From contig CANNHN010000004.1 of the NCBI GenBank assembly GCA_947504725.1, positions 1 to 64,000 on the forward strand: DNA of 64,000 nt, given 5' to 3'. Shown here one piece after another: positions 330 to 44,251 of this stretch (its first letter is position 1; every line of letters begins with the position of its first letter). Source of the stretch: Bacteroidota bacterium (GTDB lineage Bacteria > Bacteroidota > Bacteroidia > 2-12-FULL-35-15). The position numbers and the translations under genes are program-made. The notes beneath the pieces were generated by a model that was given only the letters and a program-made list of their open reading frames with translations, was not told where the DNA came from and did not search any database.

Positions 330-434
330 TAAAACGCGATTATTTGCCGATACAAAATCTATAAAAAATCCTATCCAATAGGTCGTCATTCATTATTCTG
401 GTTTTTCTGAAAGTAAAACTACGATACAACGTAG
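330..434 (+). repeat. Att-like element end, copy 1 (integrase side)
   Basis: The inner arm at 400-423 contains GTTTTTCTGAAAGTAAAAC followed by TACG. The core is CTACG (419-423), ATACAA (424-429), CGTAG (430-434), and the outer side continues CGTAGGT. The stretch 330-423 also matches 43707-43794 over about 75 bp with scattered differences. The 24-bp arm recurs inverted at 32249-32272. The integrase start at 138 lies on the inner side. Interpretation as a tyrosine-recombinase attachment site is inference. Confidence 0.7.
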
Positions 435-453
435 GTTGTTTGAACTTTGGATT

Positions 454-30551: not shown

Positions 30552-30638
30552 AATAGTGATAGAGTGATAAGGTTATAATGTAATAGTGTTGATTAATTTA
30601 GATTCAAATTTAAGGTTTTTTTGATGAGGATTAGTATG

Positions 30639-30867
30639 GGAACGCAGATTTCTTATGATGGTTATGATAAGGTATGATTTTAAGGGGTTTCTTGTAATCA
30701 TAAGATACTCCATTCCCCTCTTGAGAGGAGCTAGGCCTGCCTGCCGGACAGGCAGGGGTGTGTATTGGTTAATTATAATTAAGATAAAATATGTTTATAT
30801 AAATCATAATTTATTTCACTATTGTTTTATCCTTTTAATCATAAAAATCATAAGAAATCTGCGTTCC
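30639..30867. repeat. MITE-like element with 21-bp perfect inverted ends
   Basis: The outer arms contain GAACGCAGATTTCTTATGAT (30639-30659, preceded by one G) and its exact complement at 30847-30867. Inside lie two smaller palindromes: CCCCTCTTGAGAGGAG near 30714 and CCTGCCTGCCGGACAGGCAGG at about 30736-30756. The 229-bp unit has no convincing coding potential. It fills most of the 361-base gap between fumC and the transposase. Similar ATCATAAGAAATCTGCGTTCC ends are frequent in Bacteroidota genomes. Confidence 0.75.
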
Positions 30868-30912
30868 TATTCTCGCTTTCTGCGTATCACTCTCAAACCA
30901 AAACCAAATTTC

Positions 30913-32214
30913 ATGAGACAAAAATATGATAGTTCTGTAGTATTTCTTTATGCTACTGGCAACGAAGCTTTACTTCCAAAAGAATTCAGGCAACAAATAC
31001 CTTACACTACTATTTCTTCCTGGCGAAAGGCGGATTATAGTTCTTACATTGGAAATGAATTTCGGTATTTTTTTGATGAGGCTTTTGAAGGCGCTGAATT
31101 GAAATTTAATTACAGAAAACAAAAACGCGCTTTGATTGCTTTTGCCAGATCTTGGCTTACGCTTTCTGTTTTTCTTAAACCGGTATTGAAAAAGGCTGGA
31201 AAGGATAAAACACTTCGAAAAAAACTTCTTCATGCAATTGAATGCATGAAGGAACATTTAGGAACGGAGAAGACTATTAAATTATTAGGAATCACAAAAT
31301 CCCAATATCGTCAGTGGATTTTGGAAGAACAGTTTTCATGTTTTGATTCTTCAACTGCACTTTGTGTGAAACGTTATCCGCACCAATTGGCAAATAAAGA
31401 AATTCAAAAAATAAAAAAAATGCTTCTTGATCCAGAGTTGGCTCATTGGCCTATTCTGTCCATCGCTGCGTTTGGCTTGCGCGAAGGAAAAATCATTGCG
31501 AGTTTGTACAGTTGGTATAAGTATGCTAAACTTTATGGTGTTACCCGACCGTTTTCCAGAAAGGATCAAAAGAAAATTGGTTTGATTGCAACTTATCCGA
31601 ACGAATATTTACATGCAGACCTCACTGAATTAATTGTTGGTGGAAAGAAAGCTTATATGTCGGTGGTGATGGACAACTATTCGAAAATGATTCTTGGATT
31701 TCATATCGGAAGAAGAAAAACTGCGCATCTCTCATTAGTAGCTTTACGTAAAGCGATTGAAGTGATACTTAAGCATCCAAATCACTCTCATATTTTCTTA
31801 GTAACTGATGGCGGAAAAGAAAACCATAATAAGCTGATGGAAGAATTTATTAGGAAATCCAAGACACATAAACTCACTAAGATAAGAGCGCTGAAGGAAA
31901 TTCAATTTTCGAATTCACCAGTTGAAGCAGTTCATAAGATTATGAAAGGGCGTTATCTCCCAAAACAGATATTCGCTACTATGAAAAGTTTAAAAGAATA
32001 CCTCGATTGGGCCGTGCACGATTATAATGAGCTTCGACCTCACTATCGGCATAGTCCGAGAACTCCTTATGAAGCCTATTTCAATATTCCTTTAAAATTT
32101 GATCTTAAGAAGAGGAGAAGGAATGCGGTGGTAAAAAGAGTTAAAAAAAATTCCTGTTCGAAATGCATTCAGTGTAAATTGGGACCGAGATTAAAAGACT
32201 GTTGTTCAGCATAA
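30913..32214 (+). CDS. DDE integrase-core transposase
   Basis: 433 aa from the ATG at 30913 (MRQKYDSSVVFLY); the open frame continues upstream only through the MITE-like repeat. After a helical DNA-binding half (helix-turn-helix-like TEKTIKLLGITKSQYRQWI near residue 120) comes an rve/RNase H-type core. D1 is in YLHADLTEL near residue 235, D2 in FLVTDGGKENHNKL near 300, and E in SNSPVEAVHKIMK near 338. The tail is Cys-rich (SCSKCIQCKL ... LKDCC), possibly a small metal-binding knuckle. I found no matching terminal repeats immediately flanking the gene. It sits 23 bp outside the att-like site of the island. Confidence 0.8.
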   Translation: MRQKYDSSVVFLYATGNEALLPKEFRQQIPYTTISSWRKADYSSYIGNEFRYFFDEAFEGAELKFNYRKQKRALIAFARSWLTLSVFLKPVLKKAGKDKTLRKKLLHAIECMKEHLGTEKTIKLLGITKSQYRQWILEEQFSCFDSSTALCVKRYPHQLANKEIQKIKKMLLDPELAHWPILSIAAFGLREGKIIASLYSWYKYAKLYGVTRPFSRKDQKKIGLIATYPNEYLHADLTELIVGGKKAYMSVVMDNYSKMILGFHIGRRKTAHLSLVALRKAIEVILKHPNHSHIFLVTDGGKENHNKLMEEFIRKSKTHKLTKIRALKEIQFSNSPVEAVHKIMKGRYLPKQIFATMKSLKEYLDWAVHDYNELRPHYRHSPRTPYEAYFNIPLKFDLKKRRRNAVVKRVKKNSCSKCIQCKLGPRLKDCCSA

Positions 32215-32237
32215 TAGTTTTTTTGACTATCTTAGAC

Positions 32238-32273
32238 CTACGAATGAACGTAGTTTTACTTTCAGAAAAACCC
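32238..32273 (-). repeat. Att-like element end, copy 3 (left end of cargo island)
   Basis: Core CTACG (32238-32242), AATGAA (32243-32248), CGTAG (32249-32253). The inner 24-bp arm 32249-32272 is the exact reverse complement of 43771-43794. The outer side is ACCTACG. No direct target duplication flanks the two island ends. Confidence 0.75.
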
Positions 32274-32299
32274 GAAATGCAGTGGGAAAGGGTGAAAAT

Positions 32300-32324
32300 T
32301 CAGGTTCGATCCCCCTACGGGCTA
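32300..32324 (+). other. tRNA T-arm-like fragment
   Basis: GGTTCGATCCCCCTACGGGC resembles the TTCGATC loop and 3' acceptor side of a tRNA, but the 5' side of the T stem does not pair beyond two bases and no tRNA body lies upstream. It could be a scar of an earlier integration at a tRNA gene. The last codons and stop of the tyrosinase gene fall within it. It may be chance. Confidence 0.3.
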
Positions 32325-32974
32325 CAGTGCTGATTATAATAAGTGGGGCTTTGCCATACAGCCCATTGTCTATCAATATTTGTATGATGAGCCCAAAATA
32401 TCGGATCAAATGCCGCACGCGGCACAGAAGACATTTCACCACGATTTGCACCGCCTGCACCAACCCAAACATGAATGCTTCCGTGAGGTCCTTCTATTGC
32501 ACTATTAAATGATTCATAAGTATTGTTCTTGTATGCCAGTTTAGCAGAATCACTTATACTTTTTAATTGTTCAACTCTCCCAGGAAATCTTTTTGTTTTT
32601 CTGCTTCGATCTTCAATCGGTCCATTATACAAGGAATTTTCCTCAGTTACTCCTGATTGTAAATTGTAAAACTGATCGTTATATCCATCTGGTATACCAG
32701 TCTGCAGGCTTTCCATTGAAGTCCAATCCCAATACGGTAAATTTACAGAGCTGTCAATTTTTTTTAGTTCTGATTCGAATTTGAAAATATAGTATCTGTG
32801 CCATGGTAAAAATAAGAAACTTCCATGTGGACAAAGAGCTTTAGGGATCCCATGGTATCCGGCCATATCAATATAACTGAACTCTCCAATTTTTTCCTGG
32901 AAAGTCTTCATTGCTATTCTCAATTTATTGAGTTCGTCTGAAGTGTAGTTTCTGATATCTTTTCTTATGTTCAT
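32315..32974 (-). CDS. Tyrosinase-family copper protein
   Basis: 219 aa, no signal peptide. The two type-3 copper sites are complete: CuA ligands His41, His50 and His59 (AGYHGIP, CPHGS, LPWHRYY), and CuB ligands His164, His168 and His196 (GPHGSIHVWVG, FDPIFWAHHTNIDRQW). A Cys at 48, two residues before His50, could form a thioether. Tyrosinases hydroxylate phenols and oxidise catechols to quinones. The chain stops soon after CuB (WAVWQSPTYYNQHCSP), shorter than most family members, and the stop codon lies in the tRNA-like fragment, so the C-terminus may be truncated. It is last in the island's gene cluster. With no export signal it may act inside the cell or be carried by a partner. Confidence 0.88.
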   Translation of the reverse strand: MNIRKDIRNYTSDELNKLRIAMKTFQEKIGEFSYIDMAGYHGIPKALCPHGSFLFLPWHRYYIFKFESELKKIDSSVNLPYWDWTSMESLQTGIPDGYNDQFYNLQSGVTEENSLYNGPIEDRSRKTKRFPGRVEQLKSISDSAKLAYKNNTYESFNSAIEGPHGSIHVWVGAGGANRGEMSSVPRAAFDPIFWAHHTNIDRQWAVWQSPTYYNQHCSP

Positions 32975-33093
32975 ATATCTAATTTTGAAATTTCACATTT
33001 TATTTCTTCATTTCTGGTCCAACCAATTCTTAAACAATCAGAATCGATTGGTCCAGAGCAGAATTGCTGAACAGATCAACAGGCCCGTGAAGT

Positions 33094-33813
33094 TTATTTA
33101 TGTTTATCTTTTGAGAAAGAAAAGTCGGGAGATGCCCAATTTAGATCTACATTTCCTGCGATGCCATTAACTGAACCTTTTTCTGACCATTGCCACATAA
33201 GCCATTCAGTCCATCCTACTGGCAATGTTGGTTTTTGAGTTTGATAATGAGCCAACCACAATGGGTAATTCCCAAGCGTGTGGGTTGAAGGTAGATTGTC
33301 ATTTAAAAAAGACGGACCTCCATAAATAATTAGAGGCTCAGTACTATATGTTTCAAACTCTGCTATAAAAGCAAGGATCCATTGTAAATAGTCAGCTTTT
33401 TTTAATGCATCCTTATTTTTTTCCAAATCTAAAACATAAGCTTTTGCCAATGTTGGCTTTGGTAGTTTTCTAAGAGCCGCAATAAAATATTTAGCTTCAG
33501 TAACTGCATCTCCTTCTTTGTTTTCCGGAAATGCAAAGTGATAATAACCAAAAGGTAAGCCGACTCTTTTAGCCTCTTTTGCATTCGTTTCTGCTTTGAG
33601 ATCTGATATTGTCGCACCTTCTGTGGTTTTTATGTAAACAAAACGTATTGGTTCATTCGGAATAACAACTTTACTCACTTTGTCCCAATCTATTGCCCCT
33701 TGATGATGGGAAACATCAATTCCTTTCTTAAAATTGTTTAAATCTATAAATTCAAGCTCTGTTTTAAGTAGTTTGTTTTTTGGTGCTTTGTTTTTTACTG
33801 CTGTTTTTTTCAT
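33094..33813 (-). CDS. Glycoside hydrolase family 25 lysozyme-like protein
   Basis: 239 aa. The GH25 start GIDVSHHQGAIDWDKV places Asp33, and the catalytic pair DxE is seen at Asp129 and Glu131 (AYVLDLEKN). FVYIKTTEGAT and LPFGYYHFAFP are further family strands, and LMWQWSEKG near residue 210 with VDLNWA closes the barrel. GH25 enzymes cleave the N-acetylmuramic acid to N-acetylglucosamine bond of peptidoglycan. There is no signal peptide; the N-terminus is basic (MKKTAVKNKAPKNKLLK). It lies 12 bp after the 1463-aa gene and so is co-transcribed with it. It could be an effector or release enzyme delivered by another route. Confidence 0.88.
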   Translation of the reverse strand: MKKTAVKNKAPKNKLLKTELEFIDLNNFKKGIDVSHHQGAIDWDKVSKVVIPNEPIRFVYIKTTEGATISDLKAETNAKEAKRVGLPFGYYHFAFPENKEGDAVTEAKYFIAALRKLPKPTLAKAYVLDLEKNKDALKKADYLQWILAFIAEFETYSTEPLIIYGGPSFLNDNLPSTHTLGNYPLWLAHYQTQKPTLPVGWTEWLMWQWSEKGSVNGIAGNVDLNWASPDFSFSKDKHK

Positions 33814-33825
33814 ATTATTTAGTTT

Positions 33826-36800
33826 TTAAATTGTGAAAACATTTGAAAGAACAATTCGACTGTTTTTGTTTTCGATTATATTATCATAATTGGTATCATT
33901 ATCATTACCCCAATCCTCTGTTTCAATAATTACAACCTGGTATTCAGTATTTGAATAGTTGATATAGTGTAGTTTTTCATTTTCTGCTCCGGGAAGATTC
34001 GATAGTTTTAAAAAGGCCGACCTATCATTCTCTTTTTCTTTATCTGCAACATCCCATTTTATTGTACCTGATTTTCTATGACGGACAACTGCATAAAATT
34101 TTGAGAGATTTTCTGAAGGATCACCTTTCAAAGTTGTAATGTCGAATTGAAGCTTGGGCTGGATAAACCATTTCCCATAATCTATTGTTATGGTTCTGCT
34201 ACCCATGATATAAGCATACCGTGATTTAAATGTCTCGGAAATTCTGCAATCTTTGGAAATATCGTATTCTCCTTCAATATTATAATTAGATGAGTTCTCC
34301 TGATAATGTACAAGGAAAAATTTCAGGAACGGACTATGCAATTCTTTTCCTGATGCATCATTAATGTCGAGTTGAGCATCCACATACCAAAGGTTAAGTG
34401 ATTTATCAAACTTAGGAAGGTAGGTCATTATACCAAGTTCTTTAACATATTTTGGACTAAAATCTTCAAGATCCCCCAATTTATTACCTGCCATATCTGT
34501 TAAGTCAAACGGATCATTAATGTCGAAGTTAGATCTTGCCAATAATACTCCTTCATTTCTATTCAAGCCGTCATAAGGTTTTACCGTATCTGACAAAACA
34601 TCTCTTCCAACCATTGATACTAGGCCATTCCCAACAAAATAATCATTGTACTTGCTTTCTACTTCATTAACTACAAATCCAATTCTTTCTCCTTGTCCGG
34701 AAGTTAGTCTTCCTCGTTCAAAGAAAAATCTCAACCTGTTCATTGTGATTTTCCGTACATCTGAATTACCTTCTTTCCAATCTTCAATTACAGAAACAAG
34801 TGTAATATTTTTATCTGCAATTATTGGAAGACCAGGTTTTTTGCTGTTTAATATTTTAACATGGAATGGTTCATATGACAACCTGTTAAAGGTTTCTGCT
34901 GATGATTCATAAGACGTTTGGAGTTTTATTTTGTTTTCCTTATTGTCTTCAATTACACCCCATGTTTTAGGATAATAAGCAGTAAACTTTGATTTATTTT
35001 TTATCCAGAATATTTTTTCAACAAATTTTGTTTCTTTGATATCATAATTCAGATTCACGGTTACGGAATAATTTTTTGAATCATTATTATCATCTGCAAT
35101 TTTATGAATGCTGCTTTCCCAAGTGCCGAGTTGCTTTTGAACATCAACGCTAGTTTCAAATATTGCGGGCATTTCGGTATGATCATTCAGGTTTGATTCA
35201 AAATGATCGAGATTAACTTTATTCACAGGGTTGAGAGGTGTCCAGCTATCGTTGACGGTGGTGACATGTTTAGGGTCATCCTTGTACTCTTCCCACTTTG
35301 CATAGATCTCGACATTTCCTGTAGGCATTGTTTCATCAATGAAACGAACAATTCCTGCTTCGTCTTTGTAAATATTTATTTGTTCCAAATGGACCGCGCC
35401 TTCATAAGAGACAATTGTCTTGTCTTTTTGCTTAATACATTTAAGTGTATTCATGAATTTAGGGCGAACCAACGGACGTTGAATGGCATGGATCATACTG
35501 AATTCAAGAGGTGGTGTTAACAGATCATTATTACCATATCTGGTAAAATCATTGTAGTTGCCGTATGTTTCAAATTCAGCCTCGTATTTTTCGTTCAGGA
35601 TCGTTCTTGCAGTAACAAAAATTTCCTGTCCTTTTTCCAGATGGATTACAATTTCCTCTCCGACAGTATTAAAAGTCAGTAATTCTCTGTTAGTATGATC
35701 ATAATCCTTCAAAATAATTTTCCAGGCATTTATGTTAGGATATTTCCCAGTGAAATAAAATTCAAGCTGCTCATACTTTTCATAGTTTTCAGCTTTGATA
35801 GTGCGTTCCTTGTTTTTATAAAATTCAAATCTGAATCCTTTACTTAAAGGATCCGGTAAATAATTTATATTACAATTGCCGGAATAAGCATCTCTCATCC
35901 TTGTAGAACCCTTAATGGATTCTTCCAGATCATACTTCCAATATGTTGGTTCTTCACCAATTTTTTTAGGCTTTTCTTTTGGAACCCAGTTTCCGTTCAT
36001 ATCCGTGAACATAACGACTTCATCTTCGATTGCAGGGAAGTGATATTTCATGTACCAATTATATGATTCAATAAGATCCATCCCTGTTTTTCCGTCTTTC
36101 TTAAAAAGTTTATTATGCCAGAAAGCTTGCTGAAAAGAAATTGCAGGTGGCAAAATGTGTCTTACAGAAGTTTGAGTGGTTTTATATATTTTGTCATTGT
36201 CAGCTCTACTGCAATTGCGAATAACAAGATGAGTCAAGGATTCACCTTCTCTTAAGCATTCAGGCTCTCCTTTTTCATTCACTAGTTTTTCCTGAAGATA
36301 AAGCTCAATGGGTTTAACCGGTTCATTTCTTTTAAAGGTGAAATCATCAACAACAATAAAATTTGATTGTATTTTCGTTAAAAACTTCGGGTCAATAGCA
36401 AAACCATTTTTGTATTCAGGAACAGCCAATATTTGAATGTTTTTTCCAAACAACAATTTTTTATTTTTAATATCAGAAGAAGAATATTCGAATAAAAGTG
36501 GAACAATTTTTTTGTTTGTGTTCAACTTAACAATTGCTTTTTTCTTTTCCGTTTCAGTTAGTGTATTTGTATATTCTACGCCTAACGTTTCATAATCCTC
36601 CATAAAAAATTTGCTCATTGATTCAAGAACAAGTTTAGTCGATGGAGTGGTAGAACCTTCATCAACTATAGCCTCAAAATTTTCCTCTTTTTCCTGGTTT
36701 GAAAAGGCACTTGGCATTCCAATGTTTTCACCTGACCAGGTTAATAACGCCTGGTCTAGGATTACTTTTTTCTTGAGTACTTCTTCTTTGGCACCAGTAG

Positions 36801-38217
36801 GTTTTGTTATTTCCTCTTTTAATATTGCATGACTTCCTGCATCGGTATTGATAGCAAATTCTTGTTTTGTAAATTCCTTTGGCAGCAACGCATTTAATTC
36901 TGCACCTAGGCTGCCTTTTAAAGTAACAGCTCTGGTTCCAAGGGGCAGAAACTGACTTTTTTCGCTTTTTGCAAAAAACCGGTATCCTCTGGTAATTCTG
37001 TAGAGATAGTTGCTTTTCAAATTTCCTGCTTCAACTTGCTCTTCAGCTTTCAGTACTTCCGACAGATTACTATTGTACATGCTCATTCCCGTGGTTAAAG
37101 CGGCTGTATCAACAGATAGTAATTGTTTTATAATGGCATTTCGTTCAGATTCTTTTTTTGAAGGATCTTTTAGTTGTTCAATATAATTTTTGTATTTTTC
37201 TTCAACTGTTTTTAATCCCACCAACTTGCCGCCAATATCATGATTCTTCGCCTGGTATTGTTTTACCACATTTTGGATTGGGGCTGCTTCCTCTACGACC
37301 AAAACATTAAGTTCGCGATAAATTTTCATTGGAGTCTCAAGGTGTTCCCAATTTAAATTTGCTATTTCAGGAATAGATTCAGGAAAATCAAAAACGATTC
37401 CAAACGCATCAATTCCCTCAGGTAAAGAATCCTCTAAAACTTTCTTTGGTATTTCAAAATCAATCGTTTTCCCAGATAATCTTTGCAATAATATATTTGA
37501 ATCCAATACAGACCAGAAGTCCAAAATAGTATCGATGGTATCCAAAATATCCTTTAGTTGCAATTCGTCAGCAAGATGCAATGCTTTATATTCTTGCGTA
37601 TTTGTTTCATCCGAAAAAAGTGTAATTCCATTCAATTTGTCGTTAAACGCATGGATGTCGGTTTTTAAGTCAGCACTGAAAACATTATCTATTTTTGCTG
37701 CACCAACAATTTTTAACTGTTTACTCTTGATTGTGGCGAATGCTTCAATCGCTTTTTTTCGTGGCTGATCAGTATCAGGTAAGCTGTTTTTACCAAACAA
37801 AGATGTTGTTGAATTTGCACTAAGGTCAAAACTTGGGGCAAAATTTTTAATTTTATCGCTGCGTTTATCGGTTCTTTTAGGGAGACTTTTATTTAACTCA
37901 TTCCATACAGTAGGGACTTTATCTGATAAGCTCTGAAAACACAATTGTGAAACACTTATTGCCTTTTGCCCTTGCACTATTTTAACCTTTAAATTTTTTA
38001 TGAGTTTTTCATGAACAGATTTGTTTTCTATTCCGAAAGTCTTAATAAATTCCTGAAGCGCCACTAAGGAAGGAACTAGCAATTTATCGTCTCCTTCTGA
38101 AGGGAAATTAGGGTTAATATCTATGCATAAAGAAAATCTATACCATAAATTGGTTGATTCATCAGTTCTAGTTCCGAAAGGCAAAATGCTTGTGCGGATG
38201 TGTTTAAAATCTTCCAT
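33826..38217 (-). CDS. Giant protein of unknown family (1463 aa)
   Basis: 1463 aa from ATG 38217 (MEDFKHIRTSILPFGTRTDE), one base after the stop of the 1774-aa gene, so translation is probably coupled. No signal peptide or membrane helix is evident. It begins with a mixed helical region (about residues 1-420, with a predicted coiled stretch around EEKYKNYIEQLKDPSKKESERNAI). The remaining 1000 residues are largely beta-strand-like, rich in Asn, Lys, Glu and aromatic residues, with no repeats I can align by eye. No catalytic motif or known family was recognised. It could be a structural, shell or adhesin-like protein acting with the 1774-aa product. That is a guess from size, gene order and tight coupling. 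Confidence 0.7.
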   Translation of the reverse strand: MEDFKHIRTSILPFGTRTDESTNLWYRFSLCIDINPNFPSEGDDKLLVPSLVALQEFIKTFGIENKSVHEKLIKNLKVKIVQGQKAISVSQLCFQSLSDKVPTVWNELNKSLPKRTDKRSDKIKNFAPSFDLSANSTTSLFGKNSLPDTDQPRKKAIEAFATIKSKQLKIVGAAKIDNVFSADLKTDIHAFNDKLNGITLFSDETNTQEYKALHLADELQLKDILDTIDTILDFWSVLDSNILLQRLSGKTIDFEIPKKVLEDSLPEGIDAFGIVFDFPESIPEIANLNWEHLETPMKIYRELNVLVVEEAAPIQNVVKQYQAKNHDIGGKLVGLKTVEEKYKNYIEQLKDPSKKESERNAIIKQLLSVDTAALTTGMSMYNSNLSEVLKAEEQVEAGNLKSNYLYRITRGYRFFAKSEKSQFLPLGTRAVTLKGSLGAELNALLPKEFTKQEFAINTDAGSHAILKEEITKPTGAKEEVLKKKVILDQALLTWSGENIGMPSAFSNQEKEENFEAIVDEGSTTPSTKLVLESMSKFFMEDYETLGVEYTNTLTETEKKKAIVKLNTNKKIVPLLFEYSSSDIKNKKLLFGKNIQILAVPEYKNGFAIDPKFLTKIQSNFIVVDDFTFKRNEPVKPIELYLQEKLVNEKGEPECLREGESLTHLVIRNCSRADNDKIYKTTQTSVRHILPPAISFQQAFWHNKLFKKDGKTGMDLIESYNWYMKYHFPAIEDEVVMFTDMNGNWVPKEKPKKIGEEPTYWKYDLEESIKGSTRMRDAYSGNCNINYLPDPLSKGFRFEFYKNKERTIKAENYEKYEQLEFYFTGKYPNINAWKIILKDYDHTNRELLTFNTVGEEIVIHLEKGQEIFVTARTILNEKYEAEFETYGNYNDFTRYGNNDLLTPPLEFSMIHAIQRPLVRPKFMNTLKCIKQKDKTIVSYEGAVHLEQINIYKDEAGIVRFIDETMPTGNVEIYAKWEEYKDDPKHVTTVNDSWTPLNPVNKVNLDHFESNLNDHTEMPAIFETSVDVQKQLGTWESSIHKIADDNNDSKNYSVTVNLNYDIKETKFVEKIFWIKNKSKFTAYYPKTWGVIEDNKENKIKLQTSYESSAETFNRLSYEPFHVKILNSKKPGLPIIADKNITLVSVIEDWKEGNSDVRKITMNRLRFFFERGRLTSGQGERIGFVVNEVESKYNDYFVGNGLVSMVGRDVLSDTVKPYDGLNRNEGVLLARSNFDINDPFDLTDMAGNKLGDLEDFSPKYVKELGIMTYLPKFDKSLNLWYVDAQLDINDASGKELHSPFLKFFLVHYQENSSNYNIEGEYDISKDCRISETFKSRYAYIMGSRTITIDYGKWFIQPKLQFDITTLKGDPSENLSKFYAVVRHRKSGTIKWDVADKEKENDRSAFLKLSNLPGAENEKLHYINYSNTEYQVVIIETEDWGNDNDTNYDNIIENKNSRIVLSNVFTI

Positions 38218-38218
38218 A

Positions 38219-41200
38219 TTAATCAATATAAGAGTTAATAAAAATTTCCCATTGTAATCGTGTCAGTGGTTTAACTTTTCGTTCAACGGGATTTGTTATT
38301 GTTTTCAAAACAGCACTATATTTTGTTTTGTCATGAACATCCTCGGCCGATAACAGCTTGAGTGTGTTGTATTTTTGAACTGCAAGCAACATACTTCCCG
38401 ACTGGCTATTTCCAGGAGTTGCGCCTGCAAGTTTTTTATAATATGTTGCCGAAAAAGATCTCTTAAAGAATCTGCCCAAGCGTATCTCATAAGAAACGGT
38501 ACATCTGCCTTCCACATATGCGCCCTGACTTCTTACTCCCATATAGAACCTTGCAGTAATCATAATAAACCAGAGCTTCACTCTTCCTTCGCAAAGGAAA
38601 TAGCCTTCTATAACAACTCCCGTTCTATCCTTTTTATAGTACAGTCCTACAACAAGTTTTACTTCGCCTCTTAGTGGGCCTAGATTCAACCCGAAATACC
38701 CTCCGAATTCAATACTTACCTCTATTGTTGTGATTCCCTCTTTTGGATTACCAATAACAATAAAATAAAATAAACCGGTGTAGATACCAACAGATAATTT
38801 CGTTCTGTTTTCAGGTGTGCCAATTCCGACACCTAACTCCATTGGTTTTTTATCGAAATATAAGGTATATACTATTTTAAACAGTATATCTTTAAAACCG
38901 AAGGAAGGTGCCCCTGCATAAGCTATTGGAAGCAAATATTGGATTTCAACATTTTGAGGAGAAATTCTTACAGAGAAATTATCACCGAGCAGTTTTTTAA
39001 ATAATGCTTCAAGTGCCTGCACAAAAGAAAATGCACCAGCAAACTGGACATCCCTGATCTTAACTTCAAATTTTGATTTTTGATTGGTGCCTGCAACAAA
39101 ACTTACCTCATTGAAATTAATTATGATTGCTTTCAAAAGGCTGATTCCGAAATTATTAAGTCTGTTTTCTGCGCTAGACTCAACCTTGCTTATGACGGCA
39201 GGAAATTTATTTGGTTGAAAGAAAATGGTGTTCTTTACTTTAACAGAAAGTGAGGTCTTTGGATTTTCAGATGCTAAAAAACTAACAATACCAAAATCTG
39301 CATTTTTAAAGGAAGAGGTTTGCCAGTTATAATTTATTTCTTTTTTGGATAAAGAGGAAAGAATATTATACAACTCTTTTCCTTTTATTACTGCATCTAT
39401 AAGCGCTTTATTATCAGGGTCATTTAATAATTCATTTTCTTTATCTTTAACTTTCTGAATTACCAATTCTACAATGTTTTTGCCTGCAGCAATCTGATTT
39501 TTTGTGAACTCTTCAAAAATCTTTAATGCCTTGATTTGTTTTTGTATCTCAGCCTTTAGTTCATCCTCCTTTATTCTTATCTGTTCTTTAAAATCTTTAA
39601 ACCCATTTTGTGGGATTTTCATGATTTCTTCAATTCTATCGACACCTATGCTTTTGGTATAGGCGGCAATAGAAGTTTTACTTTCTAAAACAAGAGTGTC
39701 AAAATTGTCTTTTAAAATATCATATTTAAGTTTTTTTAAAGTAGGAGTGATTTGTATCTCTTCTAAATAAAATGCTTCAAGCTTTTTTCTTTCGTTCTGA
39801 ACTGATGCTATAAAGTCTTTATGTTCTACACGATTAATAATAGAATCAATAGCATTGCCTAAAAGAAATTCATTCGGTTTTAATTTAGACTTGAACGTAT
39901 TAATGTCTTTCATAGCCTTATCATACATGTTTATATAATAAGGCAGGTTAATCGTTTCAAGGATTTCAGTTAGTTTAAAAACAGATTTTTGTACGGATAC
40001 AATAGCAGGTTCATATTCTTTTATCAATGCAAAATCTGTCGGGTATTTTTTTAATTCAGTTAATAACTTAAATACGTCTGATTTGGCGGATTGAATTTTT
40101 TCTATCTCCTGGTCATATTTTTCCTTAGAATCAAGTGCAGTTTTTTTAATAGCAAGATATTTATTGTAATTAACTGAGGTTTGTTGCTGAATGTACAAAT
40201 TGTATGCTGTTACCTCCTTACCTATATCCTCCGAATACTTTTTATATAGCGTGTAGAAGCTCGTAACTTTATTGCTTATTGATAAATGAATCTGAGAATA
40301 TTCTCTGATGATCTTATCTTTTGAAGGTGCTGCAAGGTTGATGAGAATCTGATCATCGTTCAAAAAATTCTTTACAAAATTATTGATAAGGGTCTTTGTT
40401 TCAGGACCAAGATTGGGTGTTTTTGCTAGTGTATCGAATGAGTCTTTGGCATCCTTTAAAGCTTGATAATAAGGATAAATAGCTTCTGTACGGCTGATTA
40501 ATTCTGCAGCGAAGTAATTAACAATCTCATTCATCTGCGTGGTGCCAAATGTTACAATCTCATTTTGGACTTGGAGGAATCTTATTTTATGTTTAGAAAC
40601 AGCACTTTCCACCAGTTTCTCAATTTCAGAAGCAAGGTAGCCTATGTTAAATTTGTCTTTATATTCTTTAAGAGTATTTTGATAAGTAGCTATTGTATTA
40701 CTTATAGCTTCAATATCATCCAGATAATTTTTTATAGTATCATTAATAGTACGCAGATCTCCTTCTATTTCAAGGTAGATGGAATTATTAAGAAACTCGT
40801 CTCTGATAGCTTCTATTTTTGAACTGATATTCTTTATCTCATTCAAAGGTGCTTCATAATCAGGGAAAACTTCCTGCAGAATATCTAATAAGCTTATTCC
40901 GTTAAAGATCTCAGGCGCTTGTCTTAAAAGATCTGAAGGATTGAATTCTTTAATTTCGTCAACAATATTTACAGCATTCTCATATTTTTTATTAATATCT
41001 TTTCCAACAGCAATACTTTGTTTGACTAGCCCAATTGATTGAATATCAAAATCAGGGTTAACCATTCCTCCAATTGTTTCTCCTGCACCTCCGAATGCTT
41101 CTTTGATTTTCTTATAACCACTATCTGCTTTTTCCTGCCATTTGCCATTTATATTCTCCAGTACAGTTTCTCCTTTCTTAATAAAACTGTCTGTATGATT

Positions 41201-43543
41201 AAAAATAAGTCTTGCTTTATTATATATGTTTTCTACTGGCTGTCCTTTTTCATTGATCCGGATAAGTGTTTTTCCGCTTTTGTCTCTTACTTTACCTGCG
41301 TAGCCGTAATTAATAAAATCATCATTATATTCAACAATCGAGGCGATAGGTTCCGGAGTATAACTTTGAATATTTTCTACATACAGTTGAGCTTTTTTCG
41401 CTTGAGGATAAAGCGGAAATGCTCTTTCATTAAAAATGGAACTTTGGCCAACAGCAATCTCAGCGTCAGTAGGAATCAGCACCGTTCCAGTTTCGGTCTT
41501 TACAGAACGTGTAGGTTCCAAACAAATACTGAAATAGTATTCCAGGAAATCGGTTTTGGCTATGTTGGTTTTATTTGGTACAGAACCTTTTATTTCAGGG
41601 TCGGTTGGAATAAAGTCAGGAGTAAAGGCTATGCTCTGATCAATGAATCTGATAGCTCTTCTATCGAATTTCTGGTTTATAAAACCAAGTTTACTGTCGC
41701 TGTATAGATTCTCATAGATTTTTTGTTCCCCGGTTTGACATTCAATGATTTTTTTTCTGATAAAAAGAAAAGTGCTTGAAAATTTGATCTCCTTATCATT
41801 CCAATCAAAACCAATAAAATCTAGATAACAGTCATTGTCTGCATCCTTTATCTGATTTTCTTTTACCGGCCAAAAAAAAGTTGCACAATCGCAACCTGGT
41901 GCTGCATAGCTACGGGCCTCCGGATCTGTCGAGTTTATGCGGGGAGTTATAAAAGTTACCGATTTGACTTTTTTAAACGGCCATCGTTTATAATTTGTGT
42001 GCCAGTTTTTTTTCTGATCGGTATAAGGGTGCTCTGGAAGATAATCCTTTATAGCCCATATAACCGAATCTCTGTAAGTATTGTCCGTTTCTTTATCAAG
42101 AAGATCAATGCTATGAATAATTGCATCCGGCTTTGGAGGTTTTCTGTTATCATTATAAGTATAATAAACCGGAGGGTATTTTCTCGCGTGAATATAATTT
42201 TGAGGCTCTTTAGGATTGAGGTCTCCGGGTATAAATAAGTTATTGTCGAAATACGTGAGTTCTTTCTGTATGATCTCAATGTATTCATAGAATTCCATAT
42301 AACTGATCCCGTTCCTGATTTTCCTTTCTCCAATATAAACGTGTAAAGCTTTTTGACCTGTTACGGAAATAACACCGATCCTTGCTACTTTTATATATTC
42401 ATCACGGCCCATTGTTATGTGATGTTCATATTCTGCAAGATCTGTCCCGTCAGGAGGACTGAAATTTTTATAATGAAGTTTTGTTATGGCTCCAAGTCCT
42501 GTAAATGTTAATCCTTTTGTTTCTATGTTCCATTCATTATCTGAATTAAGGTTTCTACCCAGGCTGGTTAAAAAAACAAGTTCGTTCTTATCAAGTAGAG
42601 TAGGAAGATATGTTATCTCTTCAACAGGACATTCGCCATCATCTCTCAGACCCTCCTTGACGCCCCGAGGGAGAAAACCGACAGCCCTCAAAGAAGGACT
42701 TTTGATGCCATCCGCGGTTTCGAAAAACATTTGTGCCGACCAGATTTCTTCAACTGTTCGCGTCACTTTTCTATTTGCATTATTATATAAAAACCTTTTT
42801 TTGGGAATCCTATACGTTTCCATATAGGTTCTTGTGCCTTCTTTGTTATAAGGGGATAATAATAATCCTTCAGGTATTTCAAGAAGGGTCATCGGATAAT
42901 TACCGCCCTTAAATAATTTTTCGCAGATCGATTGGTAGAGCTTAATGATATAGCCTTTGGTTGGTTTTTTGTCGACATCCACAATCCTTGCCTCATCTCC
43001 TTTTTCAAAGTCAGACCACTTCTGTTTTTTAAATTTTATATAATCTGCTTCATTTGGAATTATAAGCTTATAGTATAATGGATTATTCCAGGCTAATAAA
43101 TTTTCTATTTTGCTTAGATCAATGTATGTGATCTTTTTACCTTTAGGGGTGGGTTTAACAGCGGGAGGGAAAAGTTCGAAAGCTAAAAAGGAAAAGCCTG
43201 AGATTTCGGATGTTGTTCTTTTATTTGTATTTAAATATTCAGACTCAAACTTTGCATTTCTCAATAGCAATTCCGAAATATGCTGTTGTGGAAGCTTAAC
43301 TATCATATAGCTTTTTGAATTGATATCAGACTTTACGATACAGTCAACTTTAATTTCCGCATTAATAAAATAGAAATGTAAATTGGTCAGATTGTTATCA
43401 AAATAATGAAAATCAGTTGAGATCATTGCTTCGTCAAGAGCATCCGGCAGAATATTCAAAAGCTTTGATAATGCATCAATAGTTGGAAGGGATGCAAAAG
43501 CAGTAAAAAGCATTTTTTGAGCAAATGAACGTCTTGATTCCAT
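38219..43543 (-). CDS. Giant coiled-coil protein of unknown family (1774 aa), Tat-like N-terminus
   Basis: 1774 aa, first gene of the island's cluster. The N-terminus MESRRSFAQKMLFTAFASLP fits a twin-arginine signal (S-R-R-x-F-x-x-K then a hydrophobic stretch), but there is no obvious cleavage site. Residues about 40-820 are beta-rich and include a Cys cluster (PGCDCATFFWP, NDCYLDFIGFDW). Residues about 830-1400 are a very long helical, coiled-coil region, Lys/Glu-rich and nearly free of proline and cysteine. The last 370 residues return to amphipathic beta strands with Gly and aromatic residues (FGGYFGLNLGPLRGEVKLVVGLYYKK, SFSATYYKKLAG), as in a membrane-inserting or barrel-like module. The head-stalk-tail layout suggests a secreted or structural machine part. 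No known family recognised. Confidence 0.72.
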   Translation of the reverse strand: MESRRSFAQKMLFTAFASLPTIDALSKLLNILPDALDEAMISTDFHYFDNNLTNLHFYFINAEIKVDCIVKSDINSKSYMIVKLPQQHISELLLRNAKFESEYLNTNKRTTSEISGFSFLAFELFPPAVKPTPKGKKITYIDLSKIENLLAWNNPLYYKLIIPNEADYIKFKKQKWSDFEKGDEARIVDVDKKPTKGYIIKLYQSICEKLFKGGNYPMTLLEIPEGLLLSPYNKEGTRTYMETYRIPKKRFLYNNANRKVTRTVEEIWSAQMFFETADGIKSPSLRAVGFLPRGVKEGLRDDGECPVEEITYLPTLLDKNELVFLTSLGRNLNSDNEWNIETKGLTFTGLGAITKLHYKNFSPPDGTDLAEYEHHITMGRDEYIKVARIGVISVTGQKALHVYIGERKIRNGISYMEFYEYIEIIQKELTYFDNNLFIPGDLNPKEPQNYIHARKYPPVYYTYNDNRKPPKPDAIIHSIDLLDKETDNTYRDSVIWAIKDYLPEHPYTDQKKNWHTNYKRWPFKKVKSVTFITPRINSTDPEARSYAAPGCDCATFFWPVKENQIKDADNDCYLDFIGFDWNDKEIKFSSTFLFIRKKIIECQTGEQKIYENLYSDSKLGFINQKFDRRAIRFIDQSIAFTPDFIPTDPEIKGSVPNKTNIAKTDFLEYYFSICLEPTRSVKTETGTVLIPTDAEIAVGQSSIFNERAFPLYPQAKKAQLYVENIQSYTPEPIASIVEYNDDFINYGYAGKVRDKSGKTLIRINEKGQPVENIYNKARLIFNHTDSFIKKGETVLENINGKWQEKADSGYKKIKEAFGGAGETIGGMVNPDFDIQSIGLVKQSIAVGKDINKKYENAVNIVDEIKEFNPSDLLRQAPEIFNGISLLDILQEVFPDYEAPLNEIKNISSKIEAIRDEFLNNSIYLEIEGDLRTINDTIKNYLDDIEAISNTIATYQNTLKEYKDKFNIGYLASEIEKLVESAVSKHKIRFLQVQNEIVTFGTTQMNEIVNYFAAELISRTEAIYPYYQALKDAKDSFDTLAKTPNLGPETKTLINNFVKNFLNDDQILINLAAPSKDKIIREYSQIHLSISNKVTSFYTLYKKYSEDIGKEVTAYNLYIQQQTSVNYNKYLAIKKTALDSKEKYDQEIEKIQSAKSDVFKLLTELKKYPTDFALIKEYEPAIVSVQKSVFKLTEILETINLPYYINMYDKAMKDINTFKSKLKPNEFLLGNAIDSIINRVEHKDFIASVQNERKKLEAFYLEEIQITPTLKKLKYDILKDNFDTLVLESKTSIAAYTKSIGVDRIEEIMKIPQNGFKDFKEQIRIKEDELKAEIQKQIKALKIFEEFTKNQIAAGKNIVELVIQKVKDKENELLNDPDNKALIDAVIKGKELYNILSSLSKKEINYNWQTSSFKNADFGIVSFLASENPKTSLSVKVKNTIFFQPNKFPAVISKVESSAENRLNNFGISLLKAIIINFNEVSFVAGTNQKSKFEVKIRDVQFAGAFSFVQALEALFKKLLGDNFSVRISPQNVEIQYLLPIAYAGAPSFGFKDILFKIVYTLYFDKKPMELGVGIGTPENRTKLSVGIYTGLFYFIVIGNPKEGITTIEVSIEFGGYFGLNLGPLRGEVKLVVGLYYKKDRTGVVIEGYFLCEGRVKLWFIMITARFYMGVRSQGAYVEGRCTVSYEIRLGRFFKRSFSATYYKKLAGATPGNSQSGSMLLAVQKYNTLKLLSAEDVHDKTKYSAVLKTITNPVERKVKPLTRLQWEIFINSYID

Positions 43544-43706
43544 AAATTATTCTCTAAAATTGTTTGTATAAAAATTGTTTTGCTTCTTCAAATAGGGAAT
43601 CATTCAAACTACCCCAATGAAAATACTGATGTTTTCATGCGATTAAAATAATATTTGAGGGAGTAGCTCGGAGCGAAAATATATATTGTTTCAAGAAAAG
43701 CAAAGG

Positions 43707-43805
43707 CTGGTTACTTCCCGATACAAAATCTACAAAATATCCTATACAATAAGTCATCATTCAATATTCCGGTTTTTCTGAAAGTAAAACTACGTTGTAT
43801 CGTAG
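43707..43805 (+). repeat. Att-like element end, copy 2 (right end of cargo island)
   Basis: Inner arm 43771-43794 (GTTTTTCTGAAAGTAAAAC then TACG), core CTACG-TTGTAT-CGTAG at 43790-43805, outer CGTAGGT. The stretch from 43707 matches 330-423 with a 10-base gap and scattered substitutions. The whole 300-base gap 43544-43843 otherwise holds only the AT-rich upstream region of the 1774-aa gene; no promoter of the standard type was evident. Confidence 0.75.
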
Positions 43806-43843
43806 GTGTACCAAATGTAGTGAAATTTAACAGGGGAGGAAAG

Positions 43844-44251
43844 TTATTTCAAAAACTCCAGCACTTTTTCCGGTGGCCTGCCTATAATGGCTTTCTTCCC
43901 TTTAACAACAATAGGGCGCTCAATAAGAATAGGGTTTTGAGCCATAGCTTTTATCCATTGCGCTTCAGTTAAATTCTTTCCTTCATACTTTTCCAAAAAT
44001 ATTGGCTCTTTCTTTCGCACTAAATCTACAGCTTTCAATCCAAGCATTTTTAAAAGCTCTTTTATTTCAGCTTGAGTAAGTGGTGTTTTTAAATATTCAA
44101 CAATCTCGGTTTTAACTTTCTTTTTTTCTAAGATAGTACAAACGTCTCTGCTTTTGGAGCAACGGGTGTTGTGGTATAACCTCACCCCGGCCCTCTCCAA
44201 AGGAGAGAGAGTTGTCTCCGTTTTTGTTTTAGTAGTTTTTGTCTTTATCAT
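43844..44251 (-). CDS. ArsC/Spx-type thioredoxin-fold protein (arsenate reductase-like)
   Basis: 135 aa. After an atypical leader, RLYHNTRCSKSRDVCTIL gives the family's redox motif with Cys31 (CxxS). The family patterns EYLKTPLT, LLKMLGL, and NPILIERPIVVKGKKAIIGRPPEKVLEFL follow. ArsC enzymes reduce arsenate to arsenite using glutaredoxin, but several Bacteroidota members have no arsenic context and may act as Spx-like or unknown reductases; no arsR or arsB is nearby. Residues 1-23 (MIKTKTTKTKTETTLSPLERAGV) are not family sequence: LSPLERAGVR is the translation of the palindromic repeat at 44181-44209. Normal homologues start about at RLYHN. Confidence 0.85.
   Translation of the reverse strand: MIKTKTTKTKTETTLSPLERAGVRLYHNTRCSKSRDVCTILEKKKVKTEIVEYLKTPLTQAEIKELLKMLGLKAVDLVRKKEPIFLEKYEGKNLTEAQWIKAMAQNPILIERPIVVKGKKAIIGRPPEKVLEFLK

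What the first reader, a model, noticed from the sequence alone, without database searches (positions are those of the whole stretch)
33826..43543. Two giant coupled proteins without a recognised family
The 1774-aa and 1463-aa genes are separated by one base and form over 80 percent of the island. The larger has a Tat-like start, a beta-rich head, about 570 residues of coiled coil, and a beta-rich, glycine- and aromatic-rich tail. The smaller is mostly beta. With a GH25 enzyme and a tyrosinase behind them they look like a multi-part secreted or injected machine, or a surface structure with modifying enzymes. This is the best candidate for an undescribed system in the window.
Basis: partly seen in the sequence, partly recalled or inferred. 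Interest (0 to 1): 0.8.

Follow-up and report, generated by a model that had tools for sequence, protein, structure and literature searches.

The report
Undescribed giant two-protein bacterial module
Two enormous, back-to-back bacterial genes turn out to be a partner pair that occurs, almost always together and in the same order, in genomes from about eight bacterial phyla, yet no protein-family or structure database describes either one, so this is a real and testable piece of unknown biology.

Summary
A (1774 aa) and B (1463 aa) are intact, one base apart, and match nothing in Pfam, NCBIfam, PHROGs, PADLOC or PDB sequences. They are not orphans: they are a very divergent copy of a widespread, undescribed two-gene module. 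A-family genes occur in Pseudomonadota, Actinomycetota, Bacteroidota, Armatimonadota and other phyla. In 81 of 83 loci a B gene follows directly on the same strand. In 395 genomes of the phylum, separate searches find A in 19 and strong B in 18, all 18 shared. The window keeps all 51 invariant residues listed for A and B.

The four-gene reading fails: no GH25 or tyrosinase lies near any of the other loci. The cassette is an insertion; a near relative has a 50-bp empty site. Viral, phage-tail and Tc-like readings find no support.

Models of short relatives show A as a beta-rich core, a helical linker of variable length (longest in the window) and a barrel-like C-terminal beta domain; B is a chain of Ig-like beta domains. 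Neither resembles a solved structure globally. A often has a Tat signal and B does not. My best explanation is a pre-assembled A-B complex exported by Tat to the envelope. The pairing is shown; the function is inferred.

The parts
38219..43543 (-). Gene A, 1774 aa: Tat-like N-terminus, beta-rich conserved core (about 50-830), long helical/coiled-coil linker (about 830-1430), conserved barrel-like beta C-terminal domain (about 1430-1720)
   Evidence: family profile E=1.4e-101 over residues 53-1710; all 25 listed invariant residues of 56 relatives kept; linker composition
33826..38217 (-). Gene B, 1463 aa: partner of A, no signal peptide, predicted chain of Ig-like beta domains
   Evidence: family profile E=9.7e-53; 4.9e-199 with alignment A4, which contains it; all 26 listed invariant residues kept
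33094..33813 (-). GH25 muramidase-like protein, 239 aa, 12 bases downstream of B; local passenger, not part of the conserved module
   Evidence: Pfam PF01183 E=1.1e-43, phage-endolysin-like; no homologue near any other A/B pair
32315..32974 (-). Tyrosinase-domain protein, 219 aa; local passenger
   Evidence: Pfam PF00264 E=1.5e-40; absent near other pairs and from the other 35 genomes of the order
30655..32214 (+). rve-type transposase related to IS3 at the left end of the insertion
   Evidence: Pfam rve and NCBIfam IS3-like
30552..43845 (.). Whole insertion absent from the nearest relative: flanks 30551 and 43846 are 50 bp apart in G003
   Evidence: L143 14490 to 14541; a second relative, G035, carries a different 3.4-kb filling at the same site
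32233..32276 (+). Short repeat left of the cassette, inverted relative to 43767-43810 (44 nt, 89%)
43712..43827 (-). About 117-bp repeat right of the cassette; other copies near window 340-436 and in G035

Best explanation
A and B are the two obligate subunits of one previously undescribed giant protein complex, here acquired as a mobile cassette. Shown: the pair is a conserved two-gene unit across phyla, in fixed order and orientation, with both proteins conserved along most of their length. Predicted: A is a beta-rich core joined by a helical linker of lineage-specific length to a barrel-like C-terminal beta domain; B is a rod or scaffold of Ig-like beta domains. Inferred: in Tat-bearing lineages, including the window's, A folds and binds B in the cytoplasm and the pair leaves through the Tat pathway on A's signal alone (the established hitchhiker logic of multi-subunit Tat cargo). 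It then works in the periplasm or at the cell surface as a binding or structural complex. My estimates: partner complex about 0.9; Tat export of A in Tat-bearing lineages about 0.7; B exported with A about 0.45; envelope or surface function about 0.45.
For: B directly follows A on the same strand in 81 of 83 loci. Independent A and B profiles over 395 genomes find the same 18 genomes. Homology runs through A 53-1710 and B 637-1470, with 25 and 26 invariant residues kept in the window. About 30 of 76 full-length A proteins carry a twin-arginine motif followed by a hydrophobic stretch, including most of the Bacteroidota, Armatimonadota and Chlorobiota members. The host has TatC. In Sinorhizobium a tatA gene sits right behind the pair. 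In 13-15 Kapabacteria/Ignavibacteria-type loci the pair lies beside a secreted beta-propeller protein and a protein with an outer-membrane-barrel-like C-terminal end. Structure models have pLDDT 77 and 82; the A model's weak PDB matches are mostly outer-membrane barrels and lipid carriers, those of B mostly Ig-like chains.
Against: Most Pseudomonadota and Streptomyces copies have no Tat motif, so export is not universal. B shows no signal that I could see. No assay, complex prediction or direct localisation exists. The N-terminal hydrophobic stretch of the window's A is mediocre. Envelope neighbours occur in one lineage only; elsewhere the pair has no conserved neighbours. The best structural matches have TM-scores below 0.35.
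Confidence: 0.45

Rival explanations
1. A-B is a soluble two-subunit giant enzyme or binding complex that works in the cytoplasm in most lineages; the Tat signal is a lineage-specific relocation.
For: Most Pseudomonadota and Streptomyces A proteins have no Tat motif. Both proteins keep many invariant charged residues (A: E113, R260, R346, D347, R373, D464; B: D335, R416, E583, H619, D678, H805), as an active or ligand site would. No conserved envelope partner outside one lineage.
Against: No known catalytic fold was matched. The Tat signal recurs in several phyla, and tatA or envelope genes adjoin some pairs.
Confidence: 0.3
2. A binds and moves a lipid or other hydrophobic molecule in its C-terminal barrel-like beta domain; B is the scaffold.
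For: Weak structural matches of A include LptD, microsomal triglyceride transfer protein, apolipoprotein B, the TULIP protein P47 and outer-membrane barrels.
Against: Query-normalised TM-scores are at most about 0.12; generic beta curvature can give such lists. Gram-positive members have no outer membrane, so a membrane barrel cannot be the general answer.
Confidence: 0.14
3. The pair is a toxin complex or injection device (Tc/Rhs-like or tail-derived), with GH25 as wall-piercing enzyme.
For: Giant beta-rich partners, coiled coil, adjacent muramidase in the window; a possible peptidase gene (my reading of the sequence) precedes one very divergent A (L159).
Against: No Pfam, NCBIfam or PHROG toxin, Rhs or tail match; no tail or sheath genes seen nearby; not found on phage or viral contigs; no GH25 near other pairs; C-termini are conserved rather than polymorphic.
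Confidence: 0.07

Closest known systems
Tc toxin complexes / Rhs cocoons
   Same: Giant, beta-rich partner proteins encoded side by side, with a coiled-coil element
   Different: No sequence family or fold match; no pore-forming A component, no Rhs repeats, no variable toxin C-terminus; conserved as a two-gene unit without effectors
Phage tails and contractile injection systems
   Same: Long coiled-coil protein, Ig-like domains, neighbouring muramidase in the window
   Different: No tail, sheath, baseplate or ATPase genes seen; no PHROG match below E=0.06; not found in viral collections
Multi-subunit Tat cargo exported by the hitchhiker mechanism
   Same: Only one of two partners carries the twin-arginine signal, and both are encoded together
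   Different: No cofactor enzyme family recognised; unusually large subunits; B export not shown
Giant Ig-like surface adhesins of Gram-negative bacteria (such as SiiE, PMC5466336)
   Same: Chain of Ig-like beta domains in a very large protein (B)
   Different: No type I secretion genes seen nearby, no repeated near-identical domains, length conserved rather than expanding

Membership tests
Tc toxin / Rhs | Recognisable TcA, TcB/SpvB or Rhs-repeat domains | tested here: not met
   No Pfam or NCBIfam match in the window or in relatives
Tc toxin / Rhs | Structural resemblance to solved Tc or Rhs shells | tested here: not met
   None among the 50 listed PDB matches for either model; caveat: B model lacks its last 116 residues
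Phage tail / contractile injection system | Tail, sheath or baseplate genes in the neighbourhood, or viral relatives | tested here: not met
   No tail or sheath genes seen among neighbours; no viral or phage relatives; PHROGs empty or E>0.06
Tat-exported protein (A) | Twin-arginine motif followed by a hydrophobic region near the N-terminus | tested here: inconclusive
   Present in the window (MESRRSFAQKMLFTAF) and many relatives, absent in most Pseudomonadota and Streptomyces; simple motif test, no dedicated predictor
Tat-exported protein (A) | Tat machinery in the host | tested here: met
   TatC at E=5.1e-66 in the window's genome
Tat-exported protein (A) | Tat-dependent export in vivo | not testable with these tools
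   Needs a tatC mutant or reporter fusion
A-B pair family as defined in this report | A with conserved core and C-terminal domain, followed directly by B on the same strand | tested here: met
   Profiles 1e-101 and 1e-52; all listed invariant residues kept; one-base gap

The most novel reading that the evidence does not exclude
A-B is a new class of giant two-subunit complex (about 370 kDa in the window, estimated from length) that assembles in the cytoplasm and is carried whole across the inner membrane by Tat on one signal, with a helical linker whose length is tuned by lineage, then works at the cell surface.
Probability: 0.3. Interest if true: 0.82.

Novelty: categorically new. Interest (0 to 1): 0.64.

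Why it matters
A pair of 1000-3000-residue proteins conserved from Streptomyces to Rhizobium, Cupriavidus and Kapabacteria must do something useful, yet the family, defence, phage and structure libraries searched hold nothing for it. It defines two new protein families and gives a clear experimental question. One pair lies in Cupriavidus metallidurans CH34 (NC_007974.2, A at 1316743-1320900), so a deletion is feasible in a well-studied laboratory strain. If B rides with A through Tat, it would also test the size limit of that pathway.

Tried and rejected
Viral origin: P0001, P0002 and the A alignment found nothing in viral contigs, nor did either protein in phages. Defence system: PADLOC empty apart from one chance match. 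Four-gene system: rejected. Conserved accessory genes: 117 of the nearest neighbours scanned against Pfam; no family occurs more than 4 times. PDB profile matches of A at E about 1e-4 are coiled-coil composition matches confined to the linker. The first broad alignment was too diverse for the collection scan. Literature searches gave no description of the pair; the library holds open-licence papers only, so an earlier description elsewhere is not excluded. A search for a closer subfamily around a divergent A in G286 found none.

Full report
Observation. A (38219-43543, minus) and B (33826-38217, minus) are intact open reading frames of 1774 and 1463 codons separated by a single base. GH25 (33094-33813) starts 12 bases after B and a tyrosinase-domain gene (32315-32974) follows at 119 bases; both are recognised by Pfam, A and B by nothing.

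The pair is a family. A tblastn of A against plasmids gave weak but consistent matches to its last 270 residues in Rhizobium, Sinorhizobium, Agrobacterium, Cupriavidus, Diaphorobacter, Ruegeria and Streptomyces. A phylum sample gave 17 further genomes. An alignment of that region has 8 invariant columns although the window is only 19-27% identical to the others. A scan of genome contigs with two short peptide patterns found 154 relatives, of which 80 were fetched, a lower bound. Titles name about eight phyla. Some bins are plainly mislabelled (L054 and L055 are near-identical but titled as different phyla; L085 equals a locus from another phylum), but isolates alone give Actinomycetota and Pseudomonadota, and the single-contig Bacteroidota genome G114 adds a third.

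Pairing. In 83 loci with distinct A genes, B is present in 81, always on the same strand and adjacent; L054 and L055, near-copies of each other, lack it (gaps and overlaps of a few bases in most). In 395 genomes of the phylum, separate searches with a B profile and an A profile share 18 genomes. The one A-only genome has its A at a contig end, where B would fall off. The B-only matches are marginal; one of them, in the window's own class (G131), lies in a 1401-aa gene directly behind a 1760-aa gene (hhalign probability 95% for B, nothing significant for its A), so even more divergent pairs probably exist.

Membership of the window. Profiles built from the relatives match the window's A at 1.4e-101 over residues 53-1710 and B at 9.7e-53 over residues 637-1470 of the ORF. 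All 25 and 26 invariant residues listed for the two alignments, which include the window, are kept. The window's A is nevertheless the longest branch of the tree (5.3 changes per column; median 0.31) and its nearest kin cannot be placed.

Insertion. The module is absent from the other 35 species of the window's order and was found in 1 of 395 sampled genomes of its class at this sensitivity. In the closest relative, G003, the sequences flanking 30551 and 43846 lie 50 bp apart, so 13.3 kb including the transposase, tyrosinase, GH25, B and A were inserted here or lost from the relative. In G035 the same site holds a different 3.4-kb filling. Short inverted copies of a repeat flank the cassette.

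Neighbours. No GH25 or tyrosinase homologue occurs in 2.0 Mb of relative loci, 70 of 83 with at least 6 kb beyond A. No neighbour family recurs widely. The exception is a Kapabacteria/Ignavibacteria-type lineage: in 13-15 loci there is a secreted protein with an RCC1-type or other beta-propeller and a roughly 640-aa protein with a signal-peptide-like start and a terminal aromatic residue like outer-membrane barrels (barrel assignment inferred).

Anatomy. AlphaFold2 models of a short relative from Microlunatus parietis (22% identical to the window's A; 18% for B) gave pLDDT 77.4/pTM 0.65 for whole A and 82.5/0.74 for B 1-1200. A has beta-rich N-terminal domains and a long-stranded, barrel-like beta C-terminal domain. 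Between them lies a linker of 120-400 residues in relatives and 628 in the window, the longest of 56, with 5% Pro+Gly. B is a chain of beta domains. Foldseek gives no global match for either (TM below 0.35): weak outer-membrane-barrel and lipid-carrier matches for A, Ig-like chains for B.

Mechanism. What is shown: a conserved pair under strong constraint, mobile, without fixed partners. Twin-arginine starts are found in about 30 of 76 full-length A proteins, chiefly Bacteroidota and related lineages; a tatA gene directly follows the Sinorhizobium pair; the window's host has TatC. B has no visible signal. Tat moves folded proteins and can carry an unsignalled partner with a signalled one (established knowledge), which would explain why A uses Tat and why the genes stay together. 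The conserved C-termini argue against a polymorphic toxin. The lack of Tat motifs in most Pseudomonadota and Streptomyces is the main evidence against a general envelope role.

Verdict. Function is inferred, not shown.

Noticed in passing
L028 21403-28786 (Agrobacterium vitis plasmid): The A-B pair (B apparently split in two) lies next to dpdE-dpdH genes of the 7-deazapurine DNA modification cluster.
   Followed up: no
L023 20653-20820 (Sinorhizobium meliloti plasmid pC): A tatA/tatE-type gene directly follows a pair whose A has 3052 residues.
   Followed up: partly
L159 1-6845 (G286): A very divergent 2115-aa A-like gene cut by the contig end, preceded by a 157-aa gene that reads like an M15-type peptidase; possible parallel to the window's GH25.
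   Followed up: partly
L158 6849-16357 (G131): A 1760-aa and a 1401-aa gene in A-B layout; only the B has detectable homology, so the family may reach further than sequence searches show.
   Followed up: partly
window 43712-43827, 340-436, 32233-32276: Short dispersed repeat, also in G035 at the same insertion site; the site between 30551 and the arsC-like gene looks like an insertion hotspot.
   Followed up: partly
L022, L098, L099: Patatin-like phospholipase genes close to the pair in three Rhizobiales loci.
   Followed up: no
window 32315-32974: The tyrosinase-domain protein is short (219 aa) but by eye keeps histidines in the places expected for both copper sites.
   Followed up: no
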